64,000 nucleotides of DNA from an uncultured Prevotellaceae bacterium. GTDB taxonomy: Bacteria; Bacteroidota; Bacteroidia; Bacteroidales; Bacteroidaceae. The notes below the pieces were generated by a model. The model saw nothing but the letters and a program-made list of their open reading frames with translations. It ran no database searches and had not been told where the DNA came from. The position numbers and the translations under genes are program-made. The first letter of the stretch is position 1, and every line of letters begins with the position of its first letter. The stretch lies in contig CAMWQU010000004.1 in assembly GCA_947176535.1 (NCBI GenBank), positions 52,495 to 116,494 of the forward strand. Direction: 5' to 3'. Positions 85-45,024 of this stretch are shown here, piece after piece.

Positions 85-528
85 TCATCAAGTCAGAAAC
101 AAAGTAACGGGAACGCCTCATGAAGGTGTAGTTATTACACGCATCATTGATAGTGGACAGCCATAGTTGAGTCCTTTTATCAGTATGTATCGTTGTACAT
201 ATACCTTTCGTGGGGCTAATCCGCGTTGCTCGTTTAGACTTGATGGGCAATGCGAAGGCCTTACACCGTGGAACGAGCGACAGGAGCTGGCTCCACGTTC
301 TTTATTCATGTGTAAAACAGATATTTCACACCGTTTTTAGGAGCCAAACGGGCAAAGTTGTAGCAATGTTTGGACGTCAGAAATCGGCTTTTCGAGAATG
401 CAGTCGTACTTGGTGGCATCAATCAAGTACGACCGGGCTGATGTTGTCCGCTCTATCGCAAAAGGAAGCAACTGAAAATAATGTGTTGCAGTGTGTTATT
501 TATAAAGTATAACTAAATCATTTACAAA
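85..528. other. 444-bp stretch without a convincing gene; possible mobile-element end or structured RNA
   Basis: Two ORF-track entries lie here (118-309 minus, 210-512 plus), but neither has a recognisable domain or a convincing start context. The stretch contains several self-complementary segments. One is a perfect 10-bp inverted repeat, GTCGTACTTG (403-412) and CAAGTACGAC (424-433), with an 11-nt loop. Another is a GTGGA..TCCAC pairing around 270-296. Conservation of structure rather than of protein is plausible, but I cannot assign it to a known RNA family. No typical -7 box lies immediately before the 529 ORF. Confidence 0.4.
403..433. repeat. Perfect 10-bp inverted repeat upstream of the TerB-like cassette
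   Basis: GTCGTACTTG at 403-412 pairs exactly with CAAGTACGAC at 424-433 around an 11-nt loop. It lies about 95 bp before the first cassette gene and is not followed by a T tract, so it does not look like a terminator. A recombinase or regulator site, or a stem in a transcript, would fit equally well. Confidence 0.6.
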
Positions 529-948
529 ATGGAAGAAAACAAAGTAAACACCCCGTTGGTTGATGATGTCCTTAGGTGGCACTTCTTCAACATGTACCGT
601 CTGTCTTTGTCTGATGAAGAATTTGATTTCACGGAGAGGCAGGTTCTGTATGAAATTGGTGTAGAACATGGGATTACTCCTGAACAGATTAACGAAGTGA
701 TTCTTACCGCCAACCTTGTTCCTGCTATTCCTGACACCATCGAGGGGAAAGTTGAGTGCCTTTATGATTTGGCAAGAATGGCATGGGCAGATGGGGAAAT
801 AAAACAGGAAGAGCGTGACATGATGAGAAAATGTGTAATCCGTTATGGCTTTCTGCCTGAAAATGCAGACGGCATTGTGGATTATTTTATTAAGAGTGTA
901 AAAGAAAACAAACCTAAAATCGAGATTCTACATGAAGTTAATGGATAA
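529..948 (+). CDS. TerB-like (tellurite-resistance fold) cytosolic protein
   Basis: A 139-residue, all-helical, acidic protein without signal peptide or membrane segment. Residues about 75-110 (DLARMAWADGEIKQEERDMM) have the pattern 'A..DG.i...E...' typical of TerB-like domains, in which two metal-binding helical repeats carry conserved acidic residues. A weaker similar segment lies around residues 25-60. TerB-like proteins are known from ter stress and defence loci, often with vWA proteins. Here the gene is first in a cassette and its stop overlaps the next start (ATG at 932 or 941), so the two are probably translationally coupled. It is AT-rich compared with the genes to the right of the tRNA. 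The fold assignment is by motif only; the role is unknown. Confidence 0.7.
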   Translation: MEENKVNTPLVDDVLRWHFFNMYRLSLSDEEFDFTERQVLYEIGVEHGITPEQINEVILTANLVPAIPDTIEGKVECLYDLARMAWADGEIKQEERDMMRKCVIRYGFLPENADGIVDYFIKSVKENKPKIEILHEVNG

Positions 949-2209
949 ATTAAAGGGTGGTTCTGTCAAGAGCTTGTTCGCCACCAAACCGGAATCTATA
1001 GATGCCGGCTCAGAGACTGCTTTTCAGAGTGTATCGCAAACAGGAACTTCTGCGCGTAAAAAAGGGGAACCCTATAAGCAATATGGTTTGCGCGTTGCAG
1101 GATTGTCGGCAGGTGAACTTCATACGCTTCTTCCTTATCTTCAGTCTGTTTACTTGAGTATACGCAAGGAGCAGGAAAGCGATGCAAAATTACAAGAAGC
1201 GTTAAGAAATAAATTGGATGCTAAAAAGGCGGACTTGGAAGCGGAACGCCAAAATAAGAATGAGGAAATAGCAAGCTCCCAAAATCAACAAAATCAACTC
1301 TTAACAGAGATTGAGGAACTTAACGAAGAGCTTGCCACCTTAAAGCATGGGACAAAAGAACGTAATCGTGATGCGTGGATAACGCTGGTCATTTCAAGCG
1401 TGTTGCTTGTGCCATTCTCTATTTATTTCTTTATATTTTATAGTTCCGTAGGCTATTCTGCATTCTTTAAACAGTTTGATATAGGTAACATTGCAAACGG
1501 TGATTTTACGTTGTCACAAGCAATTTTCGATTCTCAGGCTATTGCAAGCGCATGGGAAGATGGTTTTGCAGAGCTGATGTTCATACTTTTTATGCCGGTT
1601 ATATTTCTTGCATTTGGCTTCGTGCTTAACCGATGGGAGCGTGAGGATGGTTGGTTAAAGTATATTAAGATTCCTACGCTTATTACTGTCGCCTTTGTAT
1701 TTGACTCTCTCCTTTCGTTTGGAATCTGTAAAAAGATTTATGCCTTGAATGCAATGATGCAATTAAATGATGTTCCTTCATATAGTGTATCTTTAGCTTC
1801 TAAGGATGAGGACTTTTGGATTATTATATGTCTCGGTTTTGTTTCTTATTTGATTTGGGGATTTGTTTTCGGCTTTTGGATAAAAGCATGGGAAAACCTT
1901 GACCTTAATCCGGAGAAGCGCAAGAGAATGGAAGACAAGATAGAAGAAACTAAGAGAAAGTTGGAAACTGAACGTCAGAATTGCTTAAACCTAAAAGCGG
2001 AAGTGACAGGCATAGGGCCTAAGATTAAGGAAATTGAGTCTCAAATGGGAGTAAGTACACGTTATGATATTGGCAAGATTAAGTTGGAATTGAATAATTT
2101 CTTTGCCGGATGGCAAACTTATCTCGCGGTTCTTAATAAGCCGGATATCGAAAAACAAGAAGCTACAAATCTCTTTAATGACATGATAGGTTCAATTCAG
2201 AATTTATAA
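932..2209 (+). CDS. Four-pass membrane protein with two coiled coils
   Basis: 425 residues. An N-terminal soluble part (1-70) is followed by a strong coiled coil at about 76-145, rich in E/K/Q. Predicted membrane segments lie at about 149-171, 213-232, 247-266 and 295-317, and a second coiled coil spans about 325-375. With four passes, both coiled coils should face the same side, presumably the cytoplasm. I do not recognise a family. ATG 932 overlaps the end of the TerB-like gene by 17 nt; ATG 941 (MDKLKGG) is an alternative. Its position between a cytosolic TerB-like protein and an exported vWA-like lipoprotein suggests it links the two across the inner membrane, which is inference. Confidence 0.75.
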   Translation: MKLMDKLKGGSVKSLFATKPESIDAGSETAFQSVSQTGTSARKKGEPYKQYGLRVAGLSAGELHTLLPYLQSVYLSIRKEQESDAKLQEALRNKLDAKKADLEAERQNKNEEIASSQNQQNQLLTEIEELNEELATLKHGTKERNRDAWITLVISSVLLVPFSIYFFIFYSSVGYSAFFKQFDIGNIANGDFTLSQAIFDSQAIASAWEDGFAELMFILFMPVIFLAFGFVLNRWEREDGWLKYIKIPTLITVAFVFDSLLSFGICKKIYALNAMMQLNDVPSYSVSLASKDEDFWIIICLGFVSYLIWGFVFGFWIKAWENLDLNPEKRKRMEDKIEETKRKLETERQNCLNLKAEVTGIGPKIKEIESQMGVSTRYDIGKIKLELNNFFAGWQTYLAVLNKPDIEKQEATNLFNDMIGSIQNL

Positions 2210-2222
2210 AACTTATATAATT

Positions 2223-3080
2223 ATGAAGTCCAAAGTATTATTATCAGTTGTGGCTGTTGCTATGGTTGCAATGGCGTTTGTATCTTGTGGGAAGGATGCT
2301 GAGACTAAAACAAATGCTGCCGGTAAAGGAACAATTACTTCGGCTCATGTGGACAAACCTCTGAATATTTCTATTTATCTTGACTTGTCCGACAGACTTG
2401 TTCGGGATATGACTCCAAGTCAGAAAGACAGGGATATTGAGATAGTGAGTTATATAACGGAATACATAAAGAGCCATTCTGAAGCACAAAAAATAATTCC
2501 TTCAAAAGACAGAATCAAGGTGTTCTTTTACCCCACTCCGGCTGATCCAAAGATTGCCTTGCTTTCAAGTGACCTTGAAATGGATTTGAGTAAAGCCCAA
2601 CCTGCAGATAAGAAAAAGATGCTTAAAGAGTTTCAAAAGAACTTCAATACGAGTCTTACTCAGATTTATGACGCAACGCTTAAAGCAAAAGACTGGCCTG
2701 GAAGTGACATTTGGGGTTTCTTTAGAAAGCAAGTTGATACATATTGTGTAAGAGAAGATTCTCGCAACATAATTGTGATTTTAACCGATGGATATATTTT
2801 TTATGCTCAAAATAAAGTTAAGGTTGGTAATAATTATAGTTACATTACCCCTGCGACATTGAAGAATCCAAACTCCGGTTTGATAGCTGAACGTGATGGA
2901 CTCGATAACATAGAGGTTCTTATGCTGGAAGTAAATCCCATTGATCCCAAACATCAGGATCAAATGGAGCGTATTCTTCAAAAATGGTTTTCAGACATGG
3001 GTGTTCAGAAATTCTATGTCGGAGAAACAGACCTGCCGTCAAATACAAAATTGATTATTGATAAATTCTTGAAAGAATAA
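2223..3080 (+). CDS. Exported lipoprotein with a vWA-like domain
   Basis: 285 residues. Residues 1-22 form a lipoprotein signal (hydrophobic stretch, lipobox AFVSC, Cys22). The mature part starts with ISIYLDLSDR (about 49-58), in the place of the MIDAS D-x-S-x-S motif of vWA domains but with the last serine replaced, and continues to NIIVILTDGY (about 182-191), the typical vWA strand with its Asp. Metal binding may therefore be altered. It starts 13 nt after the membrane-protein gene and completes the cassette. TerB and vWA proteins are known partners in ter loci, where the vWA proteins (TerF/TerY-like) are usually cytosolic. An exported lipidated version is unusual. Function unknown. Confidence 0.7.
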   Translation: MKSKVLLSVVAVAMVAMAFVSCGKDAETKTNAAGKGTITSAHVDKPLNISIYLDLSDRLVRDMTPSQKDRDIEIVSYITEYIKSHSEAQKIIPSKDRIKVFFYPTPADPKIALLSSDLEMDLSKAQPADKKKMLKEFQKNFNTSLTQIYDATLKAKDWPGSDIWGFFRKQVDTYCVREDSRNIIVILTDGYIFYAQNKVKVGNNYSYITPATLKNPNSGLIAERDGLDNIEVLMLEVNPIDPKHQDQMERILQKWFSDMGVQKFYVGETDLPSNTKLIIDKFLKE

Positions 3081-3289: not shown

Positions 3290-3292
3290 GTG

Positions 3293-3366
3293 TAGCGGGA
3301 AAGGGACTTGAACCCTTGACCTTCGGATTATGAATCCGACGCTCTAACCAGCTGAGCTATCCCGCC
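3293..3366 (-). tRNA. tRNA with CAT anticodon (Met, or Ile2 if lysidine-modified)
   Basis: The minus strand folds into a standard 74-nt cloverleaf. The acceptor stem GGCGGGA pairs with TCCCGCT with one G-U, followed by D-arm GCTC/GAGC, the anticodon loop TTCATAA, T-arm GGG-TTCAAGT-CCC and discriminator A. The 3' CCA is not encoded. The sequence alone does not let me separate elongator Met from the lysidine-modified Ile2 isoacceptor; I favour Met. Its 3' end faces the AT-rich cassette at 1-3,080, which is the usual geometry for an island integrated at a tRNA gene. Confidence 0.95.
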
Positions 3367-19915: not shown

Positions 19916-20689
19916 CTACCATCCAAAATCTTCGACTATACCACTTCCCCCACAGAGACCACAAGTTCCACTTCCATTGCATGATGAACAGTCTACGTAT
20001 TGTCCAGGACTATAGTCTATAGAATTATATACGACGCCTCCTCCTCCGCATCCGCCACATCTGGAGGTTCCGTAACATAAGGGACATTGTTTATATTTCT
20101 TTGCTGGTTCTTCTTCAACTATTTCATAATCATCTGTGCTTATGCCAGACTTCATAGTTGCTGTATTTGATTCTTCTTGCTGTGAGTCTATTGATGATAT
20201 AACAAAATACACCGATTCTCCTATAGTCTTGGCATTGTATCTTTTTTTTATTTGCCCCAATCTACCTGTTCCTTTTTTTGCATGATCTCCATGAAGAACA
20301 TAGTCACCAGTCTGTATGTAATAATTTATCCAACATGAAGCTCTTAAGTGTTCATCTGAGGAATCATAGCCAGAGAGTGATTTTGTATCAGTATGAGGAC
20401 TAGTAATAGCATAATCTTCTCCCTTTTTGAATAAATCATATTGGCCCGCCTCTTCATAAATCCAGGCTTCAATATATCCTTCTTTTTCATTCCCTTTTCT
20501 TTCGTGATAGGAATCGACTGTTACCAATTTGCAATAATTCCAACCTTCTGATTCCATTAATTCGCGGACATTTTGAGGCCTTTTATTACAAGATGAAAGT
20601 ATTAAGGAAATGAAGAATATATAGTTTACATACTTTACTATGCCGTAAGCTGGATGCTGTCGAATATAGGAAATGGACAGAGTATTCAT
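19916..20689 (-). CDS. Exported lipoprotein with DnaJ-like CxxCxGxG zinc-finger repeats
   Basis: 257 residues. The N-terminus carries a hydrophobic segment ending LILSSC (Cys34), a lipobox; the 18 residues before it make the signal unusually long, but no better start is visible. The C-terminus holds two Cys/Gly-rich clusters, CPLCYGTSRCGGCGGGG and CSSCNGSGTCGLCGGSG, like the zinc-binding repeats of DnaJ. The middle part (about 45-170) is not recognised. Zinc-finger repeats on an exported lipoprotein are uncommon. The gene is AT-rich and is the last of three tandem exported-protein genes in an AT-rich tract. Function unknown. Confidence 0.65.
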   Translation of the reverse strand: MNTLSISYIRQHPAYGIVKYVNYIFFISLILSSCNKRPQNVRELMESEGWNYCKLVTVDSYHERKGNEKEGYIEAWIYEEAGQYDLFKKGEDYAITSPHTDTKSLSGYDSSDEHLRASCWINYYIQTGDYVLHGDHAKKGTGRLGQIKKRYNAKTIGESVYFVISSIDSQQEESNTATMKSGISTDDYEIVEEEPAKKYKQCPLCYGTSRCGGCGGGGVVYNSIDYSPGQYVDCSSCNGSGTCGLCGGSGIVEDFGW

Positions 20690-20742
20690 ACCGTATAATT
20701 TTAATTGCTTATAACATATTACGTTATTGACTTATGCTGTTT

Positions 20743-21222
20743 TTATCTTACTGTTACCATATGCGTTAGAGAAGAGGATGTACTACCTTTACTATTTGTA
20801 CATTCAACGTAGTAGTAGATATAGTATCCTCCACTATAACCGGCGTGCGATTTATCAAAAACTATACTTTCCGTCATACCTTTTTTGGCTCCTGTTTTAT
20901 AATAAGTAGCAGAACCGTATTGACGCATTGACTCTACCTTTGAGAGTTCGTTCTTACTTGGAGTCTTAGATGGTTTAGACGCATATGCAGACCAGTGAAC
21001 GGTTGCATTTATATTTTGTTCTTTATCTCCACCTGTTTTAAATCTAACACGGATAGAAAAACTTGCTTTATCTGATGTTGAAAGATATTTGTCAAAGGAA
21101 GGTCTCGTGATTGATTGCGATGAGGTCGAAGTGGAGGTAGAAAGTTTTGGATTATCTTCGTCGGGGTCACATGATGTGAAACATAAGCACAACATGATAG
21201 CAATAAACAGATTCCGTAACAT
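20743..21222 (-). CDS. Small Ser/Thr-rich lipoprotein
   Basis: 159 residues with a clear lipoprotein signal (CLCFTSC, Cys18), then a Ser/Thr-rich linker (STSTSTSSQS) and a beta-rich domain ending YYIYYYVECTNSKGS. The single family clue is this Ig-like or TTR-like strand pattern, and I do not recognise a named domain. It lies 53 bp upstream of the zinc-finger-like lipoprotein gene on the same strand. AT-rich. Function unknown. Confidence 0.6.
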   Translation of the reverse strand: MLRNLFIAIMLCLCFTSCDPDEDNPKLSTSTSTSSQSITRPSFDKYLSTSDKASFSIRVRFKTGGDKEQNINATVHWSAYASKPSKTPSKNELSKVESMRQYGSATYYKTGAKKGMTESIVFDKSHAGYSGGYYIYYYVECTNSKGSTSSSLTHMVTVR

Positions 21223-21306
21223 ATGTATAAATTATTTAGAATCAACAAGGTAATATTCGAACCGGAGTTTGATGTGGATAAGTGATAACCCACTTAATAC
21301 TCATTA

Positions 21307-21597
21307 TTACCATTTTCTAAGTCCATGCTTTTCTGGACCATGACCACAAGTGTGTCCATGCCCATCTGTATTTGAGCAGGCACCTTCGTATGTGCCATTA
21401 TTGTGCTTGTAGCCCCAATAACCAGAACAACTACAATTAGAGTTTGCACACCTATTCCTTGTTTTCACGAATTCCTTTGTTTTTTGTGATAATGCAGTTG
21501 CTACAGGTTTCGATGCTGCAAATGATCGCATTGAGAATGCTATACCTGTTATCGTTACAATCGCAATACAGAAAAGAATTGTTTTTTTAGGTTTCAT
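21307..21597 (-). CDS. Small secreted Cys/His-rich protein
   Basis: 96 residues. A signal peptide or N-terminal membrane segment (about 1-28, ILFCIAIVTITGIAFSMRSFAA) precedes a short mature part with NRCANSNCSCSGYWGY and EGACSNTDGHGHTCGHG, giving six cysteines and several histidines. In size and layout it resembles the small exported NVEALA-type peptides of Bacteroidales, but the NVEALA motif is absent, so this is only an analogy. It is first in the AT-rich triad, behind a TACTTTTG box at 21647-21654. Disulphide bonding or metal binding is plausible. Function unknown. Confidence 0.6.
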   Translation of the reverse strand: MKPKKTILFCIAIVTITGIAFSMRSFAASKPVATALSQKTKEFVKTRNRCANSNCSCSGYWGYKHNNGTYEGACSNTDGHGHTCGHGPEKHGLRKW

Positions 21598-21646
21598 TTG
21601 AGATAGATTTTAATGATTAGAAAAATGATTTTTATTATCCTGAGGA

Positions 21647-21680
21647 CAAAAGTACAAAATAATATTAGAATACCCCCCCC
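21647..21680 (-). promoter_or_regulatory. Promoter of the exported-protein triad with a G8 tract at the -33 position
   Basis: On the minus strand TACTTTTG (21647-21654) is a good -7 box. About 19 bp upstream, where -33 TTTG is expected, lies GGGGGGGG (21673-21680). Length change of this tract would move or alter the -33 contact region. Confidence 0.5.
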
Positions 21681-21849
21681 AGCGTGTTAAATTGTGTTAA
21701 TCGTATTAAAATTGTTATTTCTTGAAGCGGATATCTGTAATAATCCCTCTTTGGGATTAAAATACATAAAGGTATCAATGTCGGGCAGGCATTCGGCTAA
21801 TTCGTTCTTTTATCTTTATTAAAGGAATTGCGCCCGCGCGTACACGCCC

Positions 21850-21957
21850 GCACACGTAGGCAGGACGGGCCTCCGTCCATAGCGGGACCGAGGCTTGACA
21901 ATAGTAAGGATTGGCGTCCGTCCATAGCGGGACGGTGCCCCGACGATAGTAGGGCCC
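21850..21957. repeat. 22-bp-period palindromic repeat array, locus B
   Basis: GTCCATAGCGGGAC occurs at 21875-21888 and 21920-21933. Degenerate units GACAATAGTAAGGAT and GACGATAGTAGGGCC lie between and after them, so four or five units run with a spacing of 22-23 bp. Same unit as loci A (3120-3195) and C (58320-58378). Confidence 0.75.
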
Positions 21958-22013
21958 GGAGGGAGACATCGGGGAAAGGGGATTTTGTGTAAGAAAGTAA
22001 GGAGGAACGAAAG

Positions 22014-43528: not shown

Positions 43529-44767
43529 ATGAAAAATATAATCCTCAATCAAAGGGCTGAACGTGATGAGCTGATGGCTCGTCCATATCAGCAGCGAGAC
43601 ACCAGATATAATTTTGATGAGTTACTCGCAAATCCGTTAATCAAATTGATTACGGGGCCTCGTCGCGTCGGTAAGTCGGTGTTTGCATTGCTCATGTTGC
43701 AGGGTAAGAACTTTGCCTATCTCAATTTTGATGACAACCTTCTGCTTGAAAACTGGGACGAGGATTTAGTCATGCAGATGCTTGATGATGTATATCCGGG
43801 CTATGGATATTTGCTGCTTGATGAAATCCAAAACTTGTCTGATTGGGATTTATGGGTTAATAAACTTTATCGGCGAGGCAAGAATTTGATCATCACAGGG
43901 AGCAACGCCAAGATGTTGAGCAGTGAGATGGCGACGGTACTGACCGGGCGGTATCTCCAGATTGAGATGTTGCCTTTCAGTCTTGCTGAAACGATGCGTT
44001 GGAAAAATATCAATCCGAATCTTGAGGAGCAGTCGGCACAGGCTATTGTTGTTGCCGATGATTATATGCGTAACGGTGGCTATCCCGAAACCATCCAGTC
44101 GCGCAACATCACTAAAAGCTACCTGTCTACTCTGTTCGACTCCATTCTGTTGAAAGATGTTGCCCAACGCCATAAGATTAGAAATACTACTGATTTGTAC
44201 AATCTTGCCACTTACCTACTTTCCAACTTCTGCAATCCGATTTCGGCGAATGAACTTGCTACAGAGTTGGGACTATCAAGTGTAACAACGACCAAAAAGT
44301 TCTGTGACTATTTGGCAGAACCTTACCTGTTCTTCTATCTTCCACGTTTCAATAACAAGATGAAGCTGATGAAGAAAGCACCAAGTAAGGTATATGTTGT
44401 GGATAACGGTTTTGTGCAAAGCACGGCTTTCAATTTAAGCGAAAATCTCGGAAGACTATTGGAGAACCAAGTGTTTGTGGAACTGTTGCGTCGCGGATAT
44501 ATTCCTGGCAAAACATTATTCTACTATCGAACACGCAACGATAAGGAGATTGATTTTGTGACCCGAAACGGAACTAAAGTAGAACATCTTATACAAGTGT
44601 GCTACGATATGTCCTCCGAGAAAACATGTAAACGTGAACTCGATGCCCTCGTCGAAGCTGCCGAAGAACTCCACTGCGACAACCTTCTTGTCATCACCAA
44701 TGAGCAACAAGAAAAAATCGAGTGGAAAGAGAAAATAATAGTATTAAAACCGATAAGCCGATTCTAA
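43529..44767 (+). CDS. AAA ATPase with DUF4143 domain
   Basis: 412 residues from ATG 43529 (MKNIILNQRAERDELMARPY). Walker A GPRRVGKS (43-50), Walker B YLLLDEIQN (about 92-100), a sensor-like LIITGSNAKML and the C-terminal DUF4143 region (YLAEPYLFFYLP, ENQVFVELLRRGY, FYYRTRNDKEIDFV) are complete. The C-terminal part resembles a restriction-endonuclease-like fold. These proteins are common accessory genes of unknown role, often variable between strains. AT-rich, with operator-like repeats upstream and a decayed SIR2-like fragment directly downstream. Confidence 0.9.
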   Translation: MKNIILNQRAERDELMARPYQQRDTRYNFDELLANPLIKLITGPRRVGKSVFALLMLQGKNFAYLNFDDNLLLENWDEDLVMQMLDDVYPGYGYLLLDEIQNLSDWDLWVNKLYRRGKNLIITGSNAKMLSSEMATVLTGRYLQIEMLPFSLAETMRWKNINPNLEEQSAQAIVVADDYMRNGGYPETIQSRNITKSYLSTLFDSILLKDVAQRHKIRNTTDLYNLATYLLSNFCNPISANELATELGLSSVTTTKKFCDYLAEPYLFFYLPRFNNKMKLMKKAPSKVYVVDNGFVQSTAFNLSENLGRLLENQVFVELLRRGYIPGKTLFYYRTRNDKEIDFVTRNGTKVEHLIQVCYDMSSEKTCKRELDALVEAAEELHCDNLLVITNEQQEKIEWKEKIIVLKPISRF

Positions 44768-44773
44768 TCAGAA

Positions 44774-44908
44774 ATGGACGCTATTTTATAGGCTAATGGA
44801 TTTAATCTGTTGTCTAAAGATGGCCCGTCATGGCAAGAACTTCTCACGAATATATCTGACCGATTTTCTATTGACCCGGGACTTGCCTGCGGGATAACAA
44901 AAAAATAA
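44774..44908 (+). pseudogene. Possible remnant of a SIR2-like gene, N-terminal fragment with in-frame TAG
   Basis: Reading from ATG 44774 gives MDAIL-stop-ANGFNLLSKDGPSWQELLTN and then ISDRFSIDPGLA up to TAA at 44906. The pattern '(G/A)NGxN...SWxxLL' is what I know from the N-termini of SIR2-like NADase proteins. The TAG at 44789-44791 would be a one-base change from a sense codon such as TTG. Nothing of the rest of the gene is left. The segment is short, so chance similarity is possible. Confidence 0.4.
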
Positions 44909-44941
44909 CGCCGAACATCGTAATGACGTTCGGCGTTATTT
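44899..44941 (-). terminator. Intrinsic terminator of tRNA-Pro
   Basis: AAATAACGCCGAAC pairs perfectly with GTTCGGCGTTATTT. On the minus strand a run of seven T follows. It lies 10 bp downstream of the tRNA 3' end. Confidence 0.85.
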
Positions 44942-44950
44942 GCTTAAAAG

Positions 44951-45024
44951 TCGGGATGACAAGATTCGAACTTGCGACCACACGCCCCCCAGACGCGTAC
45001 TCTACCGGGCTGAGCTACATCCCG
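44951..45024 (-). tRNA. tRNA-Pro (anticodon GGG)
   Basis: A 74-nt cloverleaf on the minus strand: acceptor CGGGATG/CATCCCG, anticodon stem CGCGT/GCGTG with loop CTGGGGG (anticodon GGG), T-arm AAG-TTCGAAT-CTT and discriminator A. CCA is not encoded. Confidence 0.95.

What the first reader, a model, noticed from the sequence alone, without database searches (positions are those of the whole stretch)
529..3080. TerB-like / coiled-coil membrane / exported vWA-lipoprotein cassette as a candidate trans-envelope system
Three tightly packed genes (17-nt or 8-nt overlap, then 13-nt gap) encode a cytosolic TerB-like protein, a four-pass inner-membrane protein with two long coiled coils, and a lipidated vWA-like protein with a degenerate MIDAS (DLSDR) and an intact LTDG strand. 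TerB and vWA partners are known from ter stress and defence loci, but there the vWA proteins are cytosolic. Moving the vWA part outside the membrane, linked by a membrane coiled-coil protein, would connect an external event to a cytosolic TerB complex. The genes are AT-rich compared with the chromosome to the right. This is the best candidate in the window for an undescribed system.
Basis: partly seen in the sequence, partly recalled or inferred. Interest (0 to 1): 0.72.

Follow-up and report, generated by a model that had tools for sequence, protein, structure and literature searches.

The report
TerB–membrane–vWA cassette, also CRISPR-linked
A small gene cassette that pairs an inner-membrane protein with an exported von Willebrand-type protein is a real, apparently undescribed unit found patchily across Bacteroidota; its distant relatives sit inside type III CRISPR immune loci, so it is probably a membrane-acting immune or stress module, although the copy in this window has lost its first gene.

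Summary
Window 529-3080 encodes a TerB protein, a four-pass membrane coiled-coil protein (CC4TM) and an exported vWA lipoprotein. CC4TM and vWA were adjacent in 41 of 41 loci, whichever gene was the query; TerB precedes them in 33. The cassette is patchy (11/301 genomes of the family, 19/396 of the phylum). The vWA fold is supported by AlphaFold2 plus Foldseek. DLSDR and the TDG aspartate are invariant in 41 sequences, so the altered MIDAS is conserved, not decayed.

First, close relatives carry a fourth gene upstream, a transglutaminase-like protein; in the window only a deleted, frameshifted remnant is left (366-512). Second, the pair exists without TerB in a separate clade, several of whose members lie in or beside type III CRISPR loci (cas10/cmr, Cas1-Cas2, CARF, Csx20), including a single-ORF CC4TM-vWA fusion on a Runella plasmid.

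Best reading: a modular membrane effector pair driven from the cytosol, by TerB in stand-alone cassettes and by type III signalling in CRISPR loci. Defence function is inferred, not shown. No paper searched describes it, but key surveys were not available.

The parts
366..512 (+). Remnant (pseudogene) of a transglutaminase-like gene: start codon and N-terminal part, a frameshift, about 900 bp internal deletion, C-terminal end kept
   Evidence: DNA alignment with intact genes of L021, L023, L002; two collinear BLASTN blocks, window 356-466 (E 1e-7) and 480-554 (E 1e-13) against L021; intact relative hits PF01841 at E 4e-14
529..948 (+). TerB protein, 139 aa, cytosolic
   Evidence: PF05099 E 2.3e-6, above cut-off; profile hits to solved TerB-like proteins 2h5n and 2ou3; directly upstream of CC4TM in 33 of 41 loci
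932..2209 (+). CC4TM: inner-membrane protein, 425 aa, four membrane helices, N- and C-terminal coiled coils predicted in the cytosol
   Evidence: hydrophobicity and charge profile of 40 homologues; AlphaFold2 pLDDT 81; no Pfam family shared by the members
1169..1363 (+). N-terminal coiled coil of CC4TM (aa 80-144)
1904..2047 (+). C-terminal coiled coil of CC4TM (aa 325-372)
2223..3080 (+). vWA protein with lipoprotein signal peptide, 285 aa
   Evidence: AlphaFold2 model and Foldseek hits to vWA-fold proteins; immediately downstream of CC4TM in 41 of 41 loci
2286..2288 (+). Lipobox cysteine (Cys22, FVSC)
   Evidence: Cys in at least 90% of the family
2382..2396 (+). Variant MIDAS motif DLSDR (aa 54-58)
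   Evidence: invariant in 41 of 41 sequences
2784..2792 (+). TDG strand end (aa 188-190)
   Evidence: D189 and G190 invariant, T188 in at least 90%

Best explanation
The core is a two-protein inner-membrane effector: CC4TM, with its coiled coils in the cytosol, plus a vWA protein on the periplasmic side. A cytosolic input module drives it. In the cassettes of this clade the input is TerB, with a transglutaminase-like protein in some Bacteroidaceae; in the TerB-less clade it is probably a type III CRISPR or other defence signal. On triggering, the coiled coils are proposed to rearrange the four-helix membrane part, and the vWA partner to bind a target or assemble in the periplasm, perturbing the envelope to stop growth or phage spread. 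Shown: gene linkage, domain identity, predicted topology, the fusion ORF, the CRISPR context of sister-clade members, and loss of the transglutaminase-like gene in the window. Inferred: physical complex, inside-to-outside direction, defence or stress role, envelope damage. Whether the window copy still works is unknown.
For: Reciprocal searches always return the pair. A single ORF joins CC4TM (E 7e-57) and vWA (E 3e-35) inside a type III-B locus of a Runella plasmid. L084 lies with CARF, RT-Cas1, Cas2 and Cas6 genes and Cas10 17 kb away; L085 has Csx20 overlapping vWA and L080 a Csx20-like gene upstream. A viral contig has the pair after a reverse transcriptase and a DEAD helicase. Cas10 or Csx20 in 4 of 6 TerB-less against 2 of 30 TerB genomes. 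Patchy distribution; low GC in the window; nuclease-type accessory genes.
Against: No experiment. TerB cassettes are often alone among ordinary genes, and PADLOC hits nearby are scattered. L095 and L096 lack TerB and have no type III hit. The fusion is a single record and could be a lost stop codon. No CARF or other nucleotide-binding domain was detected in the pair. The small sample of CRISPR-linked loci limits the statistics.
Confidence: 0.48

Rival explanations
1. Outside-in envelope sensor: the vWA protein senses envelope damage or phage contact and signals through CC4TM to TerB in the cytosol.
For: Same anatomy; 13 Flavobacteriia-like loci have a response regulator, and 10 a TPR histidine kinase, upstream on the same strand.
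Against: The pair is kept where TerB is absent and type III CRISPR genes, which act on cytosolic RNA, are present.
Confidence: 0.22
2. Ter-type metal or oxidative stress module, not defence: TerB as a metal-responsive adaptor, vWA as a metal-binding partner outside.
For: TerB domain; conserved acidic site in vWA; general link of ter genes to stress in the literature.
Against: No TerC, TerD, kinase or phosphatase among the neighbours scanned; does not explain the CRISPR-linked clade.
Confidence: 0.14
3. In this genome the cassette is a decaying import without function, whatever it does elsewhere.
For: First gene deleted; foreign base composition; relative L022 has also lost the first gene and TerB.
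Against: The other three genes are intact, and changes against L021 concentrate at third codon positions (0.43-0.53, against 0.07-0.18 at positions 1 and 2). Other clades lack the transglutaminase-like gene altogether, so it is optional.
Confidence: 0.13

Closest known systems
Membrane effectors of type III CRISPR (Cam1, Csx23, CorA, Cam2/Cam3; PMC11229360, PMC10808066, PMC11014256)
   Same: Membrane protein with a cytosolic part, encoded in or near type III loci with ring nucleases (TerB-less clade only)
   Different: No CARF or other known sensor domain detected; an exported vWA partner is always present; most members are outside CRISPR loci and have TerB instead
TerY-P triads and Ter stress systems (described in PMC11090510)
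   Same: vWA and TerB are the kinds of domains used in ter loci
   Different: vWA is exported and has DLSDR instead of DxSxS; no kinase, phosphatase, TerC or TerD seen in the neighbours scanned
CoCoNuT systems (PMC11090510)
   Same: Coiled coils and vWA proteins in defence-like operons; internal vWA domains there also lack the MIDAS threonine
   Different: No McrB-like GTPase, helicase-nuclease or HEPN core in the TerB cassettes; core pair is membrane-bound and exported
BatB (Bacteroides aerotolerance vWA protein, PDB 3ibs)
   Same: Among the best fold matches (TM-score 0.53-0.56 on the target)
   Different: 13% identity; different motif; no Bat operon genes recognised in the loci examined

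Membership tests
TerB (PF05099) | Profile match above the curated cut-off | tested here: met
   28.3 bits against 24.4, but over only 46 residues; profile hits to 2h5n and 2ou3
vWA domain | vWA (Rossmann-like) fold | tested here: met
   AlphaFold2 core pLDDT about 90; Foldseek hits at E<=1e-3 are vWA-fold proteins; no Pfam match
vWA domain | Canonical MIDAS DxSxS...T...D | tested here: not met
   DLSDR invariant; G[S/A/C/V]D at the likely threonine site; D189 kept
Bacterial lipoprotein | Signal peptide with lipobox cysteine | tested here: met
   FVSC in the window, Cys in at least 90% of the family; L026, L085, Runella and L097 have only a hydrophobic segment
Ter stress system / TerY-P | TerC, TerD, or TerY with kinase and phosphatase in the locus | tested here: not met
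   None in the neighbours scanned in L021 and other loci
Type III CRISPR effector (window copy) | Type III cas genes in or near the locus or in the genome | tested here: not met
   No Cmr2 or Csx20 in the window's genome, which is 85% complete; type III-A Cas10 not searched separately
Type III CRISPR effector (TerB-less clade) | Located in or beside type III loci | tested here: met
   Runella plasmid, L084, L085, L080; not L095 or L096
Type III CRISPR effector (TerB-less clade) | Activation by a cyclic nucleotide or SAM-AMP | not testable with these tools
   No sensor domain recognised; needs biochemistry
CoCoNuT | McrB GTPase and coiled-coil nuclease tandem | tested here: not met
   No such proteins among the genes scanned around the cassette

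The most novel reading that the evidence does not exclude
CC4TM-vWA is an undescribed, modular inner-membrane immune effector acting across the envelope, switched between input modules: type III CRISPR signals in one clade, and TerB (with an optional transglutaminase-like protein and nucleases) in a stand-alone system spread through Bacteroidota.
Probability: 0.4. Interest if true: 0.82.

Novelty: new variant of a known kind. Interest (0 to 1): 0.62.

Why it matters
It would add a membrane effector with an exported vWA partner to the type III CRISPR arsenal. A recent survey notes ring nucleases in 31 loci that lack a known effector (PMC12409355). It would also suggest that TerB, an old domain without a clear role, can stand in for a CRISPR signal as the input to the same effector. 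The fusion ORF and the small gene set make it directly testable.

Tried and rejected
Phage-borne origin: no vWA match in 50,697 phage records; one distant viral contig only, and a CC4TM scan of viral contigs found no relative. Plasmid origin of the window copy: no plasmid relative except the distant Runella one. Known defence family: no meaningful PADLOC or PHROGs hit for the three proteins; hits to the membrane protein look like coiled-coil noise. DUF4407 kinship of CC4TM: weak matches in 3 of 40 members. CC4TM fold: mostly coiled-coil matches, none at E<=0.001. DUF6804 as an obligate part: it is widespread elsewhere (92 of 396 genomes), though beside the cassette in 7 of the 18 cassette genomes other than the window's. 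Repeats shared by the two flanks of the cassette: none found. Sequence search of solved structures with the vWA profile: nothing meaningful. More TerB-less members in the class of L084: only L084 itself and one weak fragment in 98 genomes. Not done: modelling of the complex; a separate type III-A Cas10 search; a background rate for defence genes near TerB cassettes.

Full report
WHAT IS THERE. The three genes stand at the given coordinates. Protein 1 passes the Pfam TerB cut-off. Protein 2 (CC4TM) has no Pfam family shared by its members; in the family average it has four hydrophobic cores near residues 155-170, 216-228, 250-260 and 295-311, and the charge pattern puts both coiled coils in the cytosol. 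AlphaFold2 models it at pLDDT 81, and Foldseek finds no significant match. Protein 3 has a lipobox (FVSC), and its model (mean pLDDT 74, core about 90) matches vWA-fold proteins at the top of the PDB list. The genes have GC 0.37-0.41 against 0.55-0.57 on both sides.

DO THE GENES TRAVEL TOGETHER. Starting from the vWA protein: 11 of 301 genomes of the family and 19 of 396 of the phylum. Starting from CC4TM: 17 of 393 genomes of the order, of which 12 are strong and the rest short coiled-coil hits. In every strong case the partner lies next door on the same strand: 41 of 41 loci, usually within a few bases. One further locus, L029, has a lone truncated vWA. TerB is directly upstream in 33. The 17-nt TerB/CC4TM overlap is kept in seven loci of the window's clade.

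THE MISSING FIRST GENE. In six close relatives (L002, L003, L004, L021, L023, L024) a ~343-aa protein precedes TerB; the one tested (L021) hits the transglutaminase core domain at E 4e-14. In the window two collinear pieces of that gene remain, 356-466 and 480-554, with a frameshift and about 900 bp missing. On the tree the gene belongs to one clade (support 100) and has been lost in the window and in L022. It is therefore optional, and the window copy is reduced. The other three genes still show third-position bias in their divergence from L021, though that averages over the whole divergence and says little about the time since the loss.

THE vWA SITE. Across 41 sequences D54, L55, S56, D57, R58, D71, Y149, G160, D162, N182, D189, G190 and W255 are invariant. 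The textbook MIDAS serine and threonine are replaced, but DLSDR is uniform. This argues for a specialised site (metal or salt bridge) and against decay.

THE CRISPR-LINKED CLADE. Pairs without TerB form a separate group (support 89). On the Runella sp. SP2 plasmid both proteins are one ORF, in a type III-B locus between cmr4-6/csx2 and the primase-polymerase, cas2 and cas1 genes, with a long CRISPR array. L084 lies with an NE0113 CARF gene, RT-Cas1, Cas2 and Cas6 and Cas10 17 kb away. L085 has Csx20 overlapping the end of vWA and an 18-repeat array about 18 kb away. L080 has a Csx20-like gene directly upstream. Csx20 is a demonstrated cA4 ring nuclease (PMC12409355). A viral contig carries the pair after a reverse transcriptase and a large DEAD helicase, with a WYL regulator like that of Runella. 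Cas10 or Csx20 occur in 4 of 6 TerB-less genomes and 2 of 30 TerB genomes (Fisher p 0.003); the sample is small and the genomes are related, so this is indicative only. L095 and L096 show the pair with no type III gene.

ACCESSORY GENES OF THE TERB CASSETTES. Same-strand neighbours recur: DUF6804 membrane protein (10 loci), DUF4236-type proteins (9), HSDR_N nuclease-like protein (9), small secreted proteins with a YHxxxxCxGL...CxxC pattern (8), Cys-rich SH3 proteins (6, one on the other strand), DUF1508 (5), secreted Endonuclease_NS or EEP nucleases, and in Flavobacteriia-like loci an upstream response regulator (13) and TPR kinase (10). Several of these loci are close relatives, so the counts are not independent. 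PADLOC hits among 86 neighbours were scattered: TerB cassettes are not consistently in defence islands.

HOW IT MOST LIKELY WORKS. The same membrane-vWA pair is kept while the likely input differs: TerB in one clade, type III CRISPR or other defence genes in the other. The simplest reading is that the pair is the output device, driven from the cytosol through the coiled coils, with the vWA protein completing the action in the periplasm. The direction, the physical contact and the defence role are inference.

KNOWN OR NEW. No paper found in the searched library describes this pair. Three works that could already list it (Shah 2019, Shmakov 2018, Anantharaman 2012) were not held. It is filed as a new variant of a known kind (membrane effector / TerB-vWA module), not as a member of Ter, TerY-P, CoCoNuT or any named CRISPR effector family, whose defining features were not met or not testable.

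LIMITS. The Runella fusion is one record and its junction contains a signal-peptide-like segment, so a lost stop codon is possible. The window's genome is 85% complete. The Cas10 search used the Cmr2 model only. Searches outside Bacteroidota were limited to plasmids, phages, viral contigs and one single-sequence scan of GTDB contigs.

Noticed in passing
window 3292-3366: tRNA-Met (cat) on the minus strand just after the AT-rich cassette; a possible integration site. No repeats shared by the two flanks were found.
   Followed up: partly
window 20001-22000 and 44001-45000: Two other AT-rich stretches (GC 0.36-0.43 against about 0.55), the second beside tRNA-Pro (44950-45024).
   Followed up: no
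L104 (viral contig IMGVR_UViG_3300043424_000947): Reverse transcriptase, a 241-aa protein, a 1455-aa DEAD helicase and a 273-aa coiled-coil protein upstream of a CC4TM-vWA pair, with a WYL regulator: looks like a further defence operon.
   Followed up: partly
L068-L082: In Flavobacteriia-like loci the cassette lies downstream of a TPR histidine kinase and a response regulator on the same strand, with a divergent ~310-aa gene of unknown function beyond them.
   Followed up: partly
L023, L025, L026, L068, L070, L071, L073, L074: Family of very small secreted proteins with a YHxxxxCxGL...CxxC pattern next to the cassette; no Pfam family found for the one tested.
   Followed up: partly
L002: Contig filed under a Succinivibrio MAG carries a cassette nearest to Prevotella ones; probably misbinned.
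   Followed up: no
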